Assembly (NCBI RefSeq): GCF_022347545.1 | Contig: NZ_JAKREW010000003.1 | Location: 186,001 to 250,000, forward strand | Direction of reading: 5' to 3' | From: Terribium retamae | Lineage (GTDB): Bacteria > Pseudomonadota > Alphaproteobacteria > Rhizobiales > Rhizobiaceae | DNA: 64,000 nucleotides | Part shown: positions 48,189-57,674 of the stretch, piece after piece | How the letters are laid out: each line of letters starts with the position of its first letter | How positions within the stretch are numbered: position 1 is the first letter of the stretch | Made by a program: the position numbers and the translations under genes | Notes under the pieces: model-generated | Database searches by the model: none | Told to the model about the DNA's origin: nothing | The model's input: the letters and a program-made list of their open reading frames with translations, nothing else

Positions 48189-49472
48189 TCAATTGCGATT
48201 GAACAGACTTCTTATCCTGTTACGCAGAAGGCGGGCGAAATTGCGGGTCTCTCGGTAGAGATGCAGTTGCGAGGCGGCCTGTCTGGTCGCCTTGTCGGCG
48301 TCGGGAGTCAGGCCGATGACAAAGGTGCCGACCGGCCGCCGCTCCATCCACAGACGGCTCATCACAGGATGATCGGGCACGGCGCAGGAATCCGTCATGA
48401 CGATATTTGGATCGTCGAGATGTTGCTTGGTTACTTCGATCATCAAGAGCGTGCCTGGAGAGAACGTCGCCAGCGTTTCATCATAGGCGGTCTTCCAGGT
48501 GTAGGCATGGCCGGCCTCGACGAAGACAATGAGGCTGGCGATGGTGCGGCCATCCAGCGTCAACGAATGAATGCGACACATGTCCTGCTCGGCAAGACGA
48601 TGCACGGCTTCACGCGCGAACGCGGCGCGGAAGCGGTCGATAGCCATCGCGGTGCGTTCGCGTCCTTTCCAACCTGAGGCTTCCAGCGTCAGGAAGTTCT
48701 CGATGGCCCGGCGGATTTCTTCCGGCCCGCGTGCCACTTCGTGTCTCAACTCACCGGTCTCGCCAAGACGCCGCTTCAAGCGGCGGAACTCGCGGTAGTG
48801 ATGCGAACGCAAGGATTGCTTGAGATAGGTTTCGCCGTCGAGTTTGCTTTGGAGCACCGGACGCTGCGTCTCGCCTGTGATCACCAGCGGCAGGTTGCGG
48901 GCCTCTGCAAGCGCCCTGAGCAGGCTCGCCATCGAACCATCGAGGCGCATGTCCGGAAAGGCGAAGACCTTGGGCAGTTTCAGATGCGGACGCGACAGCA
49001 TCGAGAAGAAATCTTCGATCACGCCAATCGGGTCGTCGCGATCAACGAGGGGAGTGCCGACTGGACCGAACGGGCTTGCCCAGGTGCGCATGATGGCAGC
49101 CGCGAGAGGGATGCCAGGCCGCTCCACCGAGAATGGCACCAGCAGGCGAAGCCGGCTGCGATGCTCGTTGCCATCCCGGATGACGGCAAGGCGCACCTCC
49201 TTGTCTTCCAGGCGCGGCATTGCCGGCGCCAGGAAACGCGGATTGAAGAAAACATTGGGCTCAACGGTGCGATTGCACAGATAATCGAGTTCCTCAACAA
49301 GGTCGAAGCCCGCCGAAGCTGCATAGACGGCAAGCGTCCGTTCACGCCGGTTGGAGGCCAGCAACTCGATTTCCGCCAATTCGGCGGCATCGGGCGAAAC
49401 ACCGGCAAGACCGGTCATAAGCGTCCCCGCGGGGCCGCCGCTTGTCTCTTCGATCAGCGGAACGGCGGCCAT
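48189..49472 (-). CDS. CelD/FemAB-like GNAT acyltransferase, coupled to flippase
   Basis: This 427-aa protein is of the Acetyltransf_6/CelD (FemAB-related) type. A central helix-rich region (LKQSLRSHHYREFRRLKRRLGETGELRHEVARGPEEI) precedes the C-terminal GNAT-like half with IHSLTLDGRTIASLIVFVEAGHAYTWKTAYDETLATFSPGTLLMIEVTKQ. Such enzymes modify exported polysaccharides or lipids. Its ATG overlaps the stop of the flippase (TGATG at 49472), so the two are translated together. The real substrate is unknown. Confidence 0.85.
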   Translation of the reverse strand: MAAVPLIEETSGGPAGTLMTGLAGVSPDAAELAEIELLASNRRERTLAVYAASAGFDLVEELDYLCNRTVEPNVFFNPRFLAPAMPRLEDKEVRLAVIRDGNEHRSRLRLLVPFSVERPGIPLAAAIMRTWASPFGPVGTPLVDRDDPIGVIEDFFSMLSRPHLKLPKVFAFPDMRLDGSMASLLRALAEARNLPLVITGETQRPVLQSKLDGETYLKQSLRSHHYREFRRLKRRLGETGELRHEVARGPEEIRRAIENFLTLEASGWKGRERTAMAIDRFRAAFAREAVHRLAEQDMCRIHSLTLDGRTIASLIVFVEAGHAYTWKTAYDETLATFSPGTLLMIEVTKQHLDDPNIVMTDSCAVPDHPVMSRLWMERRPVGTFVIGLTPDADKATRQAASQLHLYRETRNFARLLRNRIRSLFNRN

Positions 49473-50917
49473 CAGGCGGTTCCTTTCGCGGGAATGAAGA
49501 TAAACATGGCAATGCCAAGCTTGCGCCAGACCGTGAATGACAAGGCTGCGGCCTCGAACACCATGGCAAGCGCGGTGGCCAGCGCAGCTCCCCAGAGATG
49601 GAAGCTTGGGATCAGCACCACATTGAGTGCAACGTTGATGGCCAGCGTCAAGGCAAAAACGGCGGCGCAGATGTTCTGATGGCCGCTCATGGTGAGCAGG
49701 CTCTCGCAGGGTCCCACCGCCGCACGGGCGACGACACCGCAGACGAGCAGGAACAGCAGCGGATAGCCGGTGGAGAATTCCGGCCCAAACAGCATCAGCA
49801 TGGGCTTGCCGAGGAGAAGCACAACGAATGCCATCAAAAGGGACGGCCAGAACGTCCAGGACACCGTCTCGCGGGCGAAGGCTGCAAGCTTGCTCCTTTC
49901 GCCATGGGTGTAATGGGCATAGCGCTGCGCTACGCCGGCCTTCACTGCAAAATAAACAAAATGCACCAGCGCCAATGTTTTCACGGTCGCGAAATAGACG
50001 GCCACGTCGTCAGGAGCGAGATAGAAGCCGACCATCAGCACGTCGGCATTGGTCAGCAGGAAGAAGAAACTCTCCACCAGGAAGATCGGCAACGAAACGG
50101 CGATCCAGTCGCGCAGATGGATGGTTGTTGCGCCTGAGGGCACGCGGCCGTCGGTGCGGGCGGTAACCTCGATCAGCTGGAAGATGGTGGTGGCATAGGT
50201 GGCGACGATCGACGCAACCAATGCAGTCTTCGCGTCCGCTGGCATGCCGATCAGCAGTGCGATTGCCATGCAGGCAAGGATCGCGAGCGGACGCACGATA
50301 AAGACGAGTGAGAGGGCTGACAGCGTCCAGGAATTGGCGCGGGCGACTCCCTGGAGCAGATCGGACATCGCGATCATCGGCAGGCAGAAGATGCCGAGGA
50401 TGAAGGGCATCACATAGTAGTTTTCGATCCAGCCGGAAAACAGCCACACCCCGGCGATTCCGAGCAGTGCGATTATGGTCGAGGCGACCAGGACGAAGAT
50501 CCGGCTGGCCAGCAGGATGCCGCGCAGCTCAGGCAGTTTGCCATGTTCGCGGAATTCGGGAATGAAGCGGATCACAGAAGTATGGAAACCGAGGCAGGAC
50601 AGGTTTCCGACGATGACCATCGTCGTCCAGACCAGCACCAGGATGCCGTATTCGAAAGAACCCATCCAACGCGCCATCAGCACTTGGCTAACGAAGGCAA
50701 TGACGGCGCTGATGACGCGGATGACGAAAGCGAGCAGCGAAATCCGCCCGGCTTCGCCACGCTCATCGGATGAAAAGAGAACTGCATCGAGTTTGTCGAA
50801 CAATGGCCGTGCGCGCAGCGCCAGGCGCTGCGGCAGAAACCGCTCAGCTGTCGTGGCTGTGGAAAAGCGCACGCGGTACTCCCAGTCCTCGCGCCGAACC
50901 CTAACAGGCCTCAGCAC
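49472..50917 (-). CDS. Polysaccharide (Wzx-like) flippase
   Basis: This 481-aa membrane protein has about twelve to fourteen helices of the polysaccharide-biosynthesis/MOP flippase class, with ISLLAFVIRVISAVIAFVSQVLMARWMGSFEYGILVLVWTTMVI at the start and the LFGPEFSTGYPLLFLLVCGVV C-terminal repeat. About 50 residues precede the first helix. It should flip lipid-linked saccharide across the inner membrane. It is coupled to the CelD-like acyltransferase downstream; no glycosyltransferase lies nearby in this window. Confidence 0.87.
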   Translation of the reverse strand: MLRPVRVRREDWEYRVRFSTATTAERFLPQRLALRARPLFDKLDAVLFSSDERGEAGRISLLAFVIRVISAVIAFVSQVLMARWMGSFEYGILVLVWTTMVIVGNLSCLGFHTSVIRFIPEFREHGKLPELRGILLASRIFVLVASTIIALLGIAGVWLFSGWIENYYVMPFILGIFCLPMIAMSDLLQGVARANSWTLSALSLVFIVRPLAILACMAIALLIGMPADAKTALVASIVATYATTIFQLIEVTARTDGRVPSGATTIHLRDWIAVSLPIFLVESFFFLLTNADVLMVGFYLAPDDVAVYFATVKTLALVHFVYFAVKAGVAQRYAHYTHGERSKLAAFARETVSWTFWPSLLMAFVVLLLGKPMLMLFGPEFSTGYPLLFLLVCGVVARAAVGPCESLLTMSGHQNICAAVFALTLAINVALNVVLIPSFHLWGAALATALAMVFEAAALSFTVWRKLGIAMFIFIPAKGTA

Positions 50918-51271
50918 GGCAGACTATCTAGGCGAGACAGCTTAAAAAACGGTTCGGGGCAGGTCCTGATCAACCAGGCCGGGCGAAAGCTGGGACAACA
51001 TCCGGTCGGGCCGAAGACGATCGCCTGGTTGGAAGCGAAACTGAAAGGTTGATGAAATGGCCATGCGCGTATCGTGCTTGGGAGCCGGGTCCGAGGCGCT
51101 GCAAGATCCCCTTTCGCCGGGCAGACATGCCCTTCGAATTTGCGATGAGAATGGCAGGCTTGGTCAGGAGCATGATGCAAGTCGGTAGCGGTGGCGTCGC
51201 CGGGGTTCCAATCGCAAAGTTTCCGCACTAATTTGCCGCCCGGGTGGCACGCGCAAGATTCGGAAGGCTCC
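50918..51271. other. Intergenic stretch, divergent promoters expected, no gene seen
   Basis: These 354 bp separate the flippase gene (minus) from the triplet of membrane-anchored proteins (plus). I see no convincing ORF: a 175-aa minus frame across it has proline/serine-rich composition and overlaps the real gene at 51272. There is no clear Pho box, EcfG site or tRNA. It should hold the promoters of both flanking units. Confidence 0.55.
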
Positions 51272-51850
51272 ATGTTCGGCGGTGTCGGCTCAAAGCTCAA
51301 AGCCTGGATATTGGGCGGCATTGGCACTTTCGCCGCGCTTGCAGTCGGTGGCGCTCTCGGTGCGTTCGATACGCTGGAAAAGCCAGTCGTCGTCCTCGGA
51401 CCAGGCCAGCCGATCGAGACGGGGCCCTGGAAGGTCAAGCCGCTGCGAGCCTATACCGTCGACAAGGGTATCTATGGCTTGCCGCTTAAAGCCGGCGAGA
51501 AGGCGATTGTGTTTGAAGCCGAGATGACCAATCGCACGGCCCTTTCAAGCAAGAATTATTTTACCACCTTTCAGCCAGGCGGCACGGAAGACAAGCCCTT
51601 CGTCGTGCTGGTTCGCGATGCGACGATGTCACCTGCGCTGCAGCCGGGCTTGCCGGAACGCATGGCCTATGTCTGGGCGGTGCCGACCGGGGCAGTGCCG
51701 CCTGAGCGTTTCGTGGTTGCGGTAAATGGGAAGATCCACAAGCAGCGCGACAATCTCTATGGCGTGCCCGGCTGGTATAATGAGCATCTCATCGGCACGG
51801 TGGCGATGACAGTCGGCGTCGGCCCCGACACACCGGATGCAAAGCCATGA
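51272..51850 (+). CDS. Membrane-anchored protein A of an unrecognised cluster (192 aa)
   Basis: The product has one N-terminal membrane segment (about residues 11-32, LKAWILGGIGTFAALAVGGALGAF) and an extracytoplasmic domain of about 160 residues with predicted beta strands: GPWKVKPLRAYTVDKG, KAIVFEAEMTNRTALSSKNY, LVRDATMSPALQPGLPERMAYVWAVPTGAVPPERFVV. ATG 51272 sits behind GGAAGG; the open frame reaches 51191. The next gene overlaps it by 4 bp (ATGA), so they are coupled. It shares the PG-x-P ... V-W-x-V-P pattern with the two following genes. No family recognised. Confidence 0.75.
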   Translation: MFGGVGSKLKAWILGGIGTFAALAVGGALGAFDTLEKPVVVLGPGQPIETGPWKVKPLRAYTVDKGIYGLPLKAGEKAIVFEAEMTNRTALSSKNYFTTFQPGGTEDKPFVVLVRDATMSPALQPGLPERMAYVWAVPTGAVPPERFVVAVNGKIHKQRDNLYGVPGWYNEHLIGTVAMTVGVGPDTPDAKP

Positions 51851-52425
51851 TGCGAAGGGTTGCCAATCTGGCGGTTTTCCTGATTGCCATTCTGCTCTGT
51901 TACGGCATGCAGACGACCAAGCCGCATTACGCCGACCTTACCGGCCCGATCCCGGCCTACGGCGCGATCTCAAATACGGTTCATACACGCACCTTCGACA
52001 TCGGTGTCGACAAGGTTGTTTTTGCGCGCACGCTGAAATTCGATCAGTTCGGCAAGCAGAAACTGCTGACCACCGGCGGTGTCTGGGCGATCGTCACCGC
52101 CAACCTGGCTGCAACCAAGGATTCGGCCATGGTCGCTGCGGCCACCTGGCGAGGGCCGGACGGTCTCAGCTACCGCGCGAGCGAGCGGGCGTCTCTCGCC
52201 ACCGGCGGATTGCCGATGGCGCTGGATCCTGGCGTCCCTGCCAAGACGCGCATGGTGTTCGAGATTCTTCCTTCGCAGGCAGACGAGGCGATGCTGCTCG
52301 TCTCCGGCAAGCTTTTTGCTCCACTCGATTCGGAAGCGCGCATCGCGCTCGGTCCAGTCGCGCTTCAGGCGGACGGAATGCCGGAAGGCACCGTGGAGAC
52401 CTATGAACTCGGCAAGACATTCTGA
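51847..52425 (+). CDS. Membrane-anchored protein B of the unrecognised cluster (192 aa)
   Basis: This protein has the same length as protein A and the same design: membrane anchor at about residues 5-21 (VANLAVFLIAILLCYGM), then about 165 extracytoplasmic residues. GGVWAIVTANLAATKD aligns with A's AIVFEAEMTN strand, and ALDPGVPAKTRMVFEILPSQADEA aligns with A's PGLPERMAYVWAVP. The domain also contains HTRTFDIGVDKVVFARTLKFD. It starts inside the stop of A (ATGA) and is followed 9 bp later by C. No function is known. Confidence 0.75.
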   Translation: MMRRVANLAVFLIAILLCYGMQTTKPHYADLTGPIPAYGAISNTVHTRTFDIGVDKVVFARTLKFDQFGKQKLLTTGGVWAIVTANLAATKDSAMVAAATWRGPDGLSYRASERASLATGGLPMALDPGVPAKTRMVFEILPSQADEAMLLVSGKLFAPLDSEARIALGPVALQADGMPEGTVETYELGKTF

Positions 52426-52433
52426 GGTCCGTT

Positions 52434-53009
52434 TTGAGCATCGCTACGCAGGGAACCCGGAACGAGCGCACGGTGACGGAGCAACGCTGGTGGTTGCGCA
52501 GCCTGCTGGCATTGATTGTACTGATCCCTGCCGCGCTCGCAGTGATGTCCTACGACAGTGTGAAGACACTATTGGGCAATCAGGACTTTTTCGCTCAAGA
52601 CGTCGCCTGGAAGAGCAAGGCTCGTTTCGGCGGCAGCGAGTGGCAGTTGACGGACCTGCGTGCGGCGCTTGGCCGTTCTGACATCCCGCCGGATCTGGTC
52701 CCCATATTGGTCGACTTCACGGTCACTGTCGGTGAACCTGATCTGCAGAAGCTGTGGCTTGGTTGCAGGATCATGCTCATTGATGCTGCAGATCGTCATT
52801 GGCTGCCGACGGGGGCGGTATCGTTCCGACAGGCGGATGATGCCAAGACCTGCGTTTCGGCGATGTTTTCCGGCGCTAAGAGTGGCGATACGCTGAAGGT
52901 ACGCGAGACTTTTCTTGTACCGAAGGACGCGACCGCGACCATCCGGCCGGCCGTGAGCGTAGGCAGCGAGCGCCCCTCATTCCTGCTCTTCCAGCGGCCG
53001 CAAGATTAG
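52434..53009 (+). CDS. Membrane-anchored protein C of the unrecognised cluster (191 aa)
   Basis: This third tandem copy in the same layout starts with TTG at 52434 (GAGGT upstream); a GTG at 52473 is an alternative. Membrane segment LLALIVLIPAALAVMSYDSV (about residues 25-44), then an extracytoplasmic domain with SEWQLTDLRAALGR, which mirrors A's PWKVKPLRAYTVD (W-x-[VL]-x-x-LRA), VPILVDFTVTVGE, and KSGDTLKVRETFLVPKDATATI, equivalent to the PG-x-P...VP motif. Its 3' end faces the membrane protein gene, 23 bp apart. Confidence 0.75.
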   Translation: MSIATQGTRNERTVTEQRWWLRSLLALIVLIPAALAVMSYDSVKTLLGNQDFFAQDVAWKSKARFGGSEWQLTDLRAALGRSDIPPDLVPILVDFTVTVGEPDLQKLWLGCRIMLIDAADRHWLPTGAVSFRQADDAKTCVSAMFSGAKSGDTLKVRETFLVPKDATATIRPAVSVGSERPSFLLFQRPQD

Positions 53010-53032
53010 ATCACGGTCTACCGTGCGCCGAT

Positions 53033-54334
53033 TTATGCCGGCTTGCCGACCGCTTGCGCCGAGGCGCGTTTCGGCAATGCGAAAGCGCATTCCAAAATGG
53101 CGGCGAGAAAACAAATCCGCAGCGGCTCGACGAGGATTCCCGTCGAACTGTCCTGGAACGGGCTGCCGAACAGGAAAGTCACGCCATGGGCGATCACCTG
53201 CCAGGTGTCGAGATCGTGCGGGCCGATCAATCGCGTGGCGCCCAACCATGCCCAGGCAGCCGCCCAGTCGATCAGCCGGTAGCCGACGATAAGGACGACG
53301 ACCAGCAGCACGCTTGAACTCAGCGTCAGCCGCACGCCGTTGGCGATCGGCAGATAGCGGGAGCGGTAGCCACTGATGAAATGTTCGACGAAGTCGCGCA
53401 GGAATTTCGGGATCGTCTTGTAGCGCTCGCCGAAACGCTCGACACGCTGGTGGATCCGCATCAGTTCCTGGTCGTCACGAACATTGTAACCATAGATCAG
53501 TGCCGTCATCACCAGCCAGATGACCGGCATGAGCATGTAGAAGAACAGGTTGATCAGAGTGGTGGAGATGCCGAGCGGCATCATCTCCACGGGCGTGACA
53601 ATCGGCGCTGCAGCCATGGCCTTGCCGATCGGCGCTGCCATGCCGTCTCCTGCGGCCTGAAAGAATGAACCGATGTTGCGGCTCATCACCCAGGACATTG
53701 CCGAATCCTTCCAACGGCTGATGACGTAGAGACCGATGAAGATCCAGTTGGTCTCGCAGATGACGACGATGATCTGCCATGCGGAGGAGGCGCCGCCGCG
53801 TTTCTGCATTTCCTTGGCGACGCGCCGGATCAGCCAGGAAATGGCGACTGAAAACAGCAGCCAGCGTGAATCCAGCACGTCGAGGACATTGCCGGATTCA
53901 CCGAAGGGAGCGAGATCCAACGCTGCGCGTGAATATTGACGTACCGTGTCGCCGAGGAAGCCCCAGGCGGCGTAGTAGGCGAAAAACGGCAACAGGGCGA
54001 TGGTGACCATATTGGTCAGCCGTGCGGTGCCGCTGGTTTCGCCCTCTCCGTTCGTCGTGCCGGCTGCCGCGGCCTGGGCGGCACGTATGGCAGGCAATGC
54101 CGGGCGCAATATCTGGAACATCGCCACCGTCACCACGAGTTGCGTGAGCGCCACCAGGGTCAACAAAGCAAGGCCAGCCATGTGGTTGACCATGGCCACA
54201 TGGGTGGCAAGCCGCATGAACAGGCCGCCGGCAACGATCCCGAGAAGCACCAAAGCGATGAGTTGTGGCCAGAAACGGCAGAACAGGCGCAGCGTCAGTC
54301 CGACCGGCCTTACAATGTCGGCAAGCATATCCAC
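53033..54334 (-). CDS. Polytopic membrane protein facing the A-B-C cluster
   Basis: This 433-aa protein has about nine predicted membrane segments: LIALVLLGIVAGGLFMRLA, LALLTLVALTQLVVTVAMFQIL, MVTIALLPFFAYYAAWGFLGDTV, FSVAISWLIRRVAKE, IIVVICETNWIFIGLYVIS, TTLINLFFYMLMPVIWLVMTALIYGY, LTLSSSVLLVVVLIVGYRLIDWAAAW, GVTFLFGSPF and ICFLAAILECAFALP. A loop of about 60 charged residues (NVRDDQELMRIHQRVERFGERYKTIPKFLRDFVEHFISGYRSR) is cytoplasmic or periplasmic. It looks transporter-like but I recognise no family. It converges with A-B-C (ends 23 bp apart), so it may work with them. Confidence 0.75.
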   Translation of the reverse strand: MDMLADIVRPVGLTLRLFCRFWPQLIALVLLGIVAGGLFMRLATHVAMVNHMAGLALLTLVALTQLVVTVAMFQILRPALPAIRAAQAAAAGTTNGEGETSGTARLTNMVTIALLPFFAYYAAWGFLGDTVRQYSRAALDLAPFGESGNVLDVLDSRWLLFSVAISWLIRRVAKEMQKRGGASSAWQIIVVICETNWIFIGLYVISRWKDSAMSWVMSRNIGSFFQAAGDGMAAPIGKAMAAAPIVTPVEMMPLGISTTLINLFFYMLMPVIWLVMTALIYGYNVRDDQELMRIHQRVERFGERYKTIPKFLRDFVEHFISGYRSRYLPIANGVRLTLSSSVLLVVVLIVGYRLIDWAAAWAWLGATRLIGPHDLDTWQVIAHGVTFLFGSPFQDSSTGILVEPLRICFLAAILECAFALPKRASAQAVGKPA

Positions 54335-54536
54335 CTCGCGACGCGCCCCCGCAGCCTTTTAGCAAAGTTTCAGCCGATGTCTGCCCTTGCAGTCGTCGAT
54401 ACGGCCGGCTGCTGACAGTTCCGCGGCGAGGTCGTAGGCGCGCTTCCCGAAAAGCCGATTGGGCCAAGGGAACCATGCCGGCAGTTTTTCATTGGAAAAT
54501 CGCCGGACGGGAGAGGACCGGCAGGAGGAAAACGTC

Positions 54537-54908
54537 ATGAAAACCGCACTTGCCATCCTGGTGGCGGCCGTTGCTTTTGGCCAATCGGCAGACGGGCTGT
54601 CAGCCGCGCCGTTGAACACGATGAACGAGGTGGGAACTGCATTGCAGAATTGCTGGAGCCCGCCTTCCGATGCAGCGAAAGGGGCGGTGACGCTGCAATT
54701 CAGTTTCAAACGCGACGGATCGCTGATCGGCCCGCCCAAGGCGACCAGCATTCGCGTGGAGGGCGATGCCGACAAGCGCCAACAACTCGTCCAGGCAGCG
54801 ATCGATGCTATTCAGAAATGCCTGCCGCTCACTTTCGCACCGAAGCTGGCGGACGGCATGGCGGGCACGGTCTTTACCTTGCAACTGGCTTCGCCGAAGC
54901 AGCAATAG
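54537..54908 (+). CDS. Small secreted protein with TonB/TolA C-terminal-like domain
   Basis: The 123-aa product has a signal peptide (KTALAILVAAVAFGQSADGLSA) and a domain with MNEVGTALQNCWSPPSDAAKGAVTLQFSFKRDGSLIGPPKATSIRV and AAIDAIQKCLPLTFAPKL, the layout of TonB/TolA C-terminal domains (W-P, conserved strand, K-C-x-P). Two cysteines may form a disulfide. ATG 54537 follows GGAGGAAAA. It is divergent from the polytopic membrane gene, about 200 bp apart. Confidence 0.8.
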   Translation: MKTALAILVAAVAFGQSADGLSAAPLNTMNEVGTALQNCWSPPSDAAKGAVTLQFSFKRDGSLIGPPKATSIRVEGDADKRQQLVQAAIDAIQKCLPLTFAPKLADGMAGTVFTLQLASPKQQ

Positions 54909-54947
54909 CGCTGCTCCGGAAAGTGACGAAGCCGTGAGCCGGTTCGG

Positions 54948-57674
<2,727 letters not shown>

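What the first reader, a model, noticed from the sequence alone, without database searches (positions are those of the whole stretch)
51272..54334. Unrecognised cluster: three equal-length membrane-anchored paralogues plus a convergent nine-helix protein
Three consecutive coupled genes encode 192, 192 and 191 aa. Each has one N-terminal membrane anchor and about 160 extracytoplasmic residues. They share short motifs in the same order: W-x-[VL]-x-x-LRA in A and C (PWKVKPLRA, EWQLTDLRA), an alternating strand (AIVFEAEMTN, WAIVTANLAAT, PILVDFTVTVG), and [PS]G-x-x-x-[KR]...[VF]-x-[VIL]P (PGLPERMAYVWAVP, PGVPAKTRMVFEILP, SGDTLKVRETFLVP). This looks like one beta domain triplicated, coupled (ATGA overlap, 9-bp gap), then facing a polytopic membrane protein only 23 bp away. 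A simple model is a three-subunit periplasmic assembly on a membrane channel or sensor. I recognise no named family.
Basis: partly seen in the sequence, partly recalled or inferred. Interest (0 to 1): 0.68.

Follow-up and report, generated by a model that had tools for sequence, protein, structure and literature searches.

The report
Undescribed four-gene inner-membrane protein module
Three small membrane-anchored proteins with antibody-like outer domains and one multi-pass membrane protein form a conserved four-gene set that some soil bacteria keep or lose as a unit; it probably makes an inner-membrane complex that nobody appears to have described, and its substrate is unknown.

Summary
The genes are real and at the stated place: A 51272-51850, B 51847-52425, C 52434-53009 (+), D 53033-54334 (-).

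They are a module. Nearly every D locus checked (L001-L080, alpha- and betaproteobacteria) carries A-B-C in that order beside D, in three orientations. Among 146 genomes of the genus, all 60 with a near-full-length D also have B; genomes without B have only D fragments or no D. In one genome ABC and D lie on different contigs, and both halves persist.

B and C are predicted to have the DUF4352/telokin-like immunoglobulin fold. A is related to B by profile (P=3.5e-6), and only marginally to C (P=0.015). D has about eight hydrophobic segments, no family match and no clear fold match.

In the window the module fills a roughly 0.3-kb gap between a flippase gene and secA that is empty in relatives.

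Best reading: an undescribed inner-membrane complex, D core with a three-part periplasmic cap, possibly transporting an envelope substrate. The complex is inferred and the substrate unknown.

The parts
51272..51850 (+). gene A: 192 aa, one N-terminal anchor, periplasmic beta domain; invariant W53, N87, R115, P125, E129, W135, K157, N161, L162, W168 across 35 relatives
   Evidence: alignment A2; profile homology to B
51847..52425 (+). gene B: 192 aa, one N-terminal anchor, predicted DUF4352/telokin-like Ig fold; overlaps A by 4 bp
52434..53009 (+). gene C: 191 aa (TTG start), one N-terminal anchor, predicted DUF4352-like Ig fold; two invariant cysteines (C111, C140) in its outer domain
53033..54334 (-). 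gene D: 433 aa polytopic inner-membrane protein, about 8 hydrophobic segments, N-in/C-in by charge; no known family or clear fold match
51207..51248 (+). possible promoter/start region of A-B-C (TTCCAA, 16 bp, TAATTT, then GGGTGGC); conserved in window-type relatives; weak
   Evidence: the consensus scan finds no sigma-70 match, so only footprint evidence
54344..54361 (-). possible -10-like TAAAAG and following G-rich GGGGGCG upstream of D, resembling the A side; weak

Best explanation
A, B, C and D are the four subunits of an undescribed inner-membrane complex. D forms the membrane core. A, B and C are three different single-pass subunits whose Ig-like (DUF4352/telokin-type) domains sit on the periplasmic face and cap or gate D. 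All four are needed, so the set is gained, moved and lost as a unit. The most likely activity is transport or handling of an envelope or small-molecule substrate through D, with A-B-C as a substrate-binding or scaffolding cap. Shown: conservation, near-obligate co-occurrence, co-inheritance, rearrangement without loss, and predicted fold of B and C. Inferred: physical complex, periplasmic orientation (positive-inside rule), fold of A, transport role.
For: Adjacency in nearly all D loci with order A-B-C kept, in three arrangements relative to D (57 convergent, 13 D-A-B-C, 1 A-B-C-D of 71 complete loci). A Shinella plasmid also has D-A-B-C with D and A overlapping by 4 bp. A/B overlap of 4 bp in 56 of 71 loci and 1 bp in 13. 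Census of 146 genus genomes: 60 of 60 with near-full-length D have B; the four genomes with D but no B hold only D fragments, and A was absent there too. In G956 (locus L037) a rearrangement separates secA-D from ABC-flippase-GNAT onto two contigs, and all four genes remain intact. Pairwise distances of A-D correlate at r = 0.92-0.95. No other gene is conserved at these loci beyond local synteny. The B and C models (mean pLDDT 89) match DUF4352/Ig structures at Z up to 12.7 for C and 11.0 for B.
Against: No interaction was tested; only B and C (as one read-through construct) and D alone were modelled. Correlated distances partly reflect shared ancestry of linked genes. D gives no function: the best fold match is yeast PNS1 (SLC44) at Z 9.2, rmsd 5.4 over 227 residues, below the level the tool calls meaningful for helical models, and no PF04515 hit at E up to 1 in 36 D proteins. 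A was not folded. G956 is, by its record title, a metagenome-assembled genome, so a misassembly could fake the split.
Confidence: 0.6

Rival explanations
1. A signalling or envelope-stress sensor: the Ig-like domains bind a periplasmic ligand and D passes the signal through its conserved basic cytoplasmic segment (about residues 283-335) to an unknown partner.
For: DUF4352 is found linked to kinases and peptidases and a ligand-sensing role was suggested for such domain pairs (PMC3924330). The cytoplasmic segment of D is among its most conserved parts.
Against: No kinase, sigma factor, protease or regulator is a constant neighbour.
Confidence: 0.17
2. A cell-surface protection or defence module against phage, contact toxins or antibiotics, which would explain the patchy, horizontally moved, often decaying distribution.
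For: Present in about 47% of genus genomes and rare elsewhere; on chromids and conjugative plasmids; one transfer into Alcaligenaceae is the simplest reading of the tree; decayed copies; sits at a site with other variable cargo.
Against: No PADLOC match; neighbours are metabolic, transport and regulatory genes, not defence genes.
Confidence: 0.13
3. An envelope-building enzyme complex (polysaccharide or lipid modification) with D as a membrane enzyme.
For: In the window it lies beside a polysaccharide flippase gene (49472-50917, PF01943).
Against: That neighbour is only the local insertion site: flippase and secA are adjacent without the module in other genomes, and most loci have no such neighbour. 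D shows no obvious catalytic motif.
Confidence: 0.1

Closest known systems
DUF4352 (PF11611) / telokin-like Ig domain proteins: B. subtilis YjhA, YcdA, YxkC; M. tuberculosis MPT63
   Same: Predicted fold of B and C (Z 10.7-12.7 for the best four); seven of 35 B proteins touch the DUF4352 profile, best E 2.5e-4; secreted or membrane-attached, outside the membrane
   Different: No window protein reaches the family score; three different single-pass copies in one operon tied to one orphan polytopic protein; in Gram-negative inner membranes
Yeast PNS1 / SLC44 choline-transporter-like proteins
   Same: Best whole-length structural match of D (Z 9.2, 227 residues)
   Different: rmsd 5.4 and Z below the helical noise level; no PF04515 sequence match; no Ig-like partners known to me
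Eukaryotic TRAP (translocon-associated) complex
   Same: Works-like analogy only, from my own knowledge: several single-pass subunits with beta-sandwich domains plus one polytopic subunit; one TRAP-complex chain appears at Z 6.3 against B
   Different: No homology shown; different membrane, no evidence of a link with Sec although secA is next door in the window-type loci

Membership tests
DUF4352 / telokin-like Ig superfamily | DUF4352-type Ig-like beta-sandwich fold | tested here: met
   B and C models: Foldseek E down to 2.4e-6, VIA Z 12.7 (YxkC model), 11.4 (YjhA), 11.0 (YcdA), 10.7 (MPT63). A only through its profile match to B. DUF4352 being an Ig fold: PMC4520260.
DUF4352 / telokin-like Ig superfamily | Pfam PF11611 score over the curated cut-off (25.9 bits) | tested here: not met
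   Window A, B, C: no hit, own genome none. Best among 35 B proteins E 2.5e-4; L064 B 16.3 bits over profile positions 2-106 of 122.
SLC44 / choline-transporter-like (PF04515) | PF04515 sequence match | tested here: not met
   36 D proteins, none at E up to 1
SLC44 / choline-transporter-like (PF04515) | SLC44 fold | tested here: inconclusive
   PNS1 Z 9.2, rmsd 5.4 over 227; Foldseek E 7.5 only
Known anti-phage defence systems | match to a PADLOC model | tested here: not met
   none for A-D
TRAP-like complex | physical association with the Sec translocon | not testable with these tools
   only the chance neighbour secA in window-type loci

The most novel reading that the evidence does not exclude
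A new type of bacterial inner-membrane machine: a three-part Ig-like periplasmic cap on a membrane protein of a new fold and family, spread as a four-gene unit and doing a job not covered by any described system.
Probability: 0.3. Interest if true: 0.75.

Novelty: new variant of a known kind. Interest (0 to 1): 0.52.

Why it matters
It turns four hypothetical genes into one testable unit with a clear prediction (a D-A-B-C complex), adds the DUF4352-type fold to a Gram-negative inner-membrane system, and gives D, which has no family entry in Pfam or NCBIfam, a set of near-obligate partners. The patchy distribution means natural genome pairs with and without the module exist for phenotype comparison.

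Tried and rejected
Reading the flippase, GNAT or secA neighbours as functional partners: rejected, they are the local insertion site. Finding a constant fifth gene: none across loci L001-L080. Defence role by PADLOC: no hit. PDB sequence search with D and B profiles: nothing useful. Fold search with D: no Foldseek match with E below 0.001; middling VIA rows only. Folding A, B and C in one read-through frame of L061: the alignment placed A rows on B, so B and C were folded from L001 instead, with the in-frame stop read as a residue purely as a convenience; no inference was drawn from their relative placement. Shared regulatory motif: GGGTGGC near both promoters in Mesorhizobium, but mostly one clade, so kept as a side note. 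Literature: only general statements on DUF4352 (PMC4520260, PMC3924330); no paper on this gene set was found, though I searched by domain name only and had no locus tags.

Full report
What is there. The window lies in a Mesorhizobium-like genome (G000:C59:186001-250000; nearest named relatives Mesorhizobium sp. 1M-11 and M. loti LU). Between a polysaccharide flippase gene (49472-50917, minus) and secA (54948-57674, minus) lie A (51272-51850), B (51847-52425), C (52434-53009) on the plus strand and D (53033-54334) on the minus strand, plus a small exported protein E (54537-54908). A and B overlap by 4 bp, B and C are 8 bp apart, C and D converge with 23 bp between them. None of A-D matches a family in NCBIfam or PADLOC, or at a meaningful level in Pfam.

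It is a module. A scan of bacterial genome contigs with D gave 152 relatives, of which 80 loci were kept. In these, A, B and C are found beside D and in the order A-B-C almost without exception; the exceptions are contig ends, a few loci where C is too diverged for tblastn with the window query, and one split case. Three arrangements occur: A-B-C convergent with D (57 of 71 complete loci), D-A-B-C in one direction (13, one Mesorhizobium clade) and A-B-C-D (1, Reyranella). A Shinella plasmid has D-A-B-C with D and A overlapping by 4 bp. A and B overlap by 4 bp in 56 and by 1 bp in 13 of 71 loci. No other gene is shared between the loci except through local synteny, and the Pfam families of 74 neighbours show no recurring partner. 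Pairwise distances of the four proteins correlate at 0.92-0.95.

Co-occurrence. In 146 genomes of the window's genus, D is found in 68 and B in 65. Reading the two tables together: 60 genomes have near-full-length D (two with one internal TGA) and all 60 have B; eight have D only in pieces, four of which also lack B (G881, G919, G943, G945), and A is absent from those four as well. The only B without D is a 35-residue scrap (G970). Outside the genus the family is rare: the phylum sample gave 5 of 398 genomes, four of them of the genus itself, and the class sample only the window's own genome among 376; a sample of the window's family gave B in 14 of 199. Locus L037 (genome G956/G981) first looked like D without A-B-C, but the same genome carries intact A, B and C on another contig: one contig reads secA-D, the other A-B-C-flippase-GNAT, that is, the two halves of the window's arrangement apart, both intact. 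This argues that the genes are kept together for function and not only by linkage; the genome is metagenome-assembled, so the split should be confirmed.

Spread. The D tree puts all Achromobacter, Bordetella and Pigmentiphaga copies in one clade inside the alphaproteobacterial ones, as one transfer would give; the tree is drawn with a midpoint root and has some long branches. Copies lie on chromids and conjugative plasmids. At the window's own site, relatives without the module there have flippase and secA about 0.3-0.5 kb apart (for example G073, G331, G486), against 4 kb in the window; G486 and G402 carry the module elsewhere. Two genomes (G422, G155) have other cargo at that site, a large LuxR-type regulator and a small exported protein, judged from their translations. 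The flippase neighbour is therefore an insertion site, not a partner.

A, B and C. Profile comparison relates A to B (P=3.5e-6; shuffled and reversed controls far lower), A to C only marginally (P=0.015, score above all 20 shuffles), B to C not at all. I folded B and C of the near relative L001 in one job, using the fact that they lie in one frame with a single stop between them, which was read as a residue; mean pLDDT 89. Both halves match the same group of solved structures: C matches YxkC (Z 12.7), YjhA (11.4) and 4les (9.5); B matches YcdA (11.0), MPT63 (10.7) and 3qfg (8.2). These are DUF4352/telokin-like Ig domains (grouping from my own knowledge); DUF4352 as an Ig fold is stated in PMC4520260. 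Seven of 35 B proteins touch the DUF4352 profile, best E 2.5e-4, but L064 B scores 16.3 bits against a cut-off of 25.9, and the window proteins do not hit at all. Basic residues before each anchor and two invariant cysteines in C fit a periplasmic location (inference).

D. Hydropathy over 60 sequences gives eight hydrophobic segments, with the basic stretches placed as expected for cytoplasmic N and C termini. The model is all-helical (mean pLDDT 77, pTM 0.76). Foldseek finds nothing with E below 0.001; the best second-look match is yeast PNS1, Z 9.2, rmsd 5.4 over 227 residues, which the tool's own notes class as possibly only a common arrangement for a helical protein. No sequence relative in the PDB.

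Mechanism. The best-supported reading is an inner-membrane complex with D as core and A-B-C as a three-part cap. Shown: conserved order and co-occurrence, co-inheritance, persistence after separation, fold of B and C by prediction. Inferred: physical assembly, orientation, transport. Sensor, protection and enzyme readings are kept as rivals with tests. Compared with known systems, B and C (and A through B) belong by fold, not by Pfam score, with the DUF4352 superfamily; D is an orphan. TRAP is an architectural analogy only.

Regulation. Upstream of both A and D in Mesorhizobium-type loci a TAnnnT is followed by a G-rich GGGTGGC/GGGGGCG; the word GCCACCC is shared by the two upstream regions in 28 of 58 loci against 2.8 by shuffling, but most of these belong to one clade, and no sigma-70 consensus is found.

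Noticed in passing
window 50918-54947: The flippase-secA interval is a variable site: about 0.3-0.5 kb and empty in several genus genomes, this module plus E in the window type, and a LuxR-type regulator plus a small exported protein in G422 and G155.
   Followed up: partly
window 48189-49472: GNAT/FemAB-like protein matches NCBIfam 'T4SS effector crotonyl transferase BspF' at E 6.7e-200 but below its cut-off (664 of 775 bits); it sits next to the flippase gene also in relatives, so the effector name may mislead as an annotation here.
   Followed up: no
window 54537-54908: Small exported protein E with a weak TolA C-terminal-like match (E 0.04); found among the fetched loci only with the window-type locus (L001, L002, L121).
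   Followed up: no
window 51207-51248 and 54344-54361: Similar -10-like and G-rich elements upstream of A and of D, possibly a shared control.
   Followed up: partly
G857, G926, G936, G943, G945, G978, L061: Broken or partial copies of D; where D is reduced to scraps, A and B are usually gone too.
   Followed up: partly
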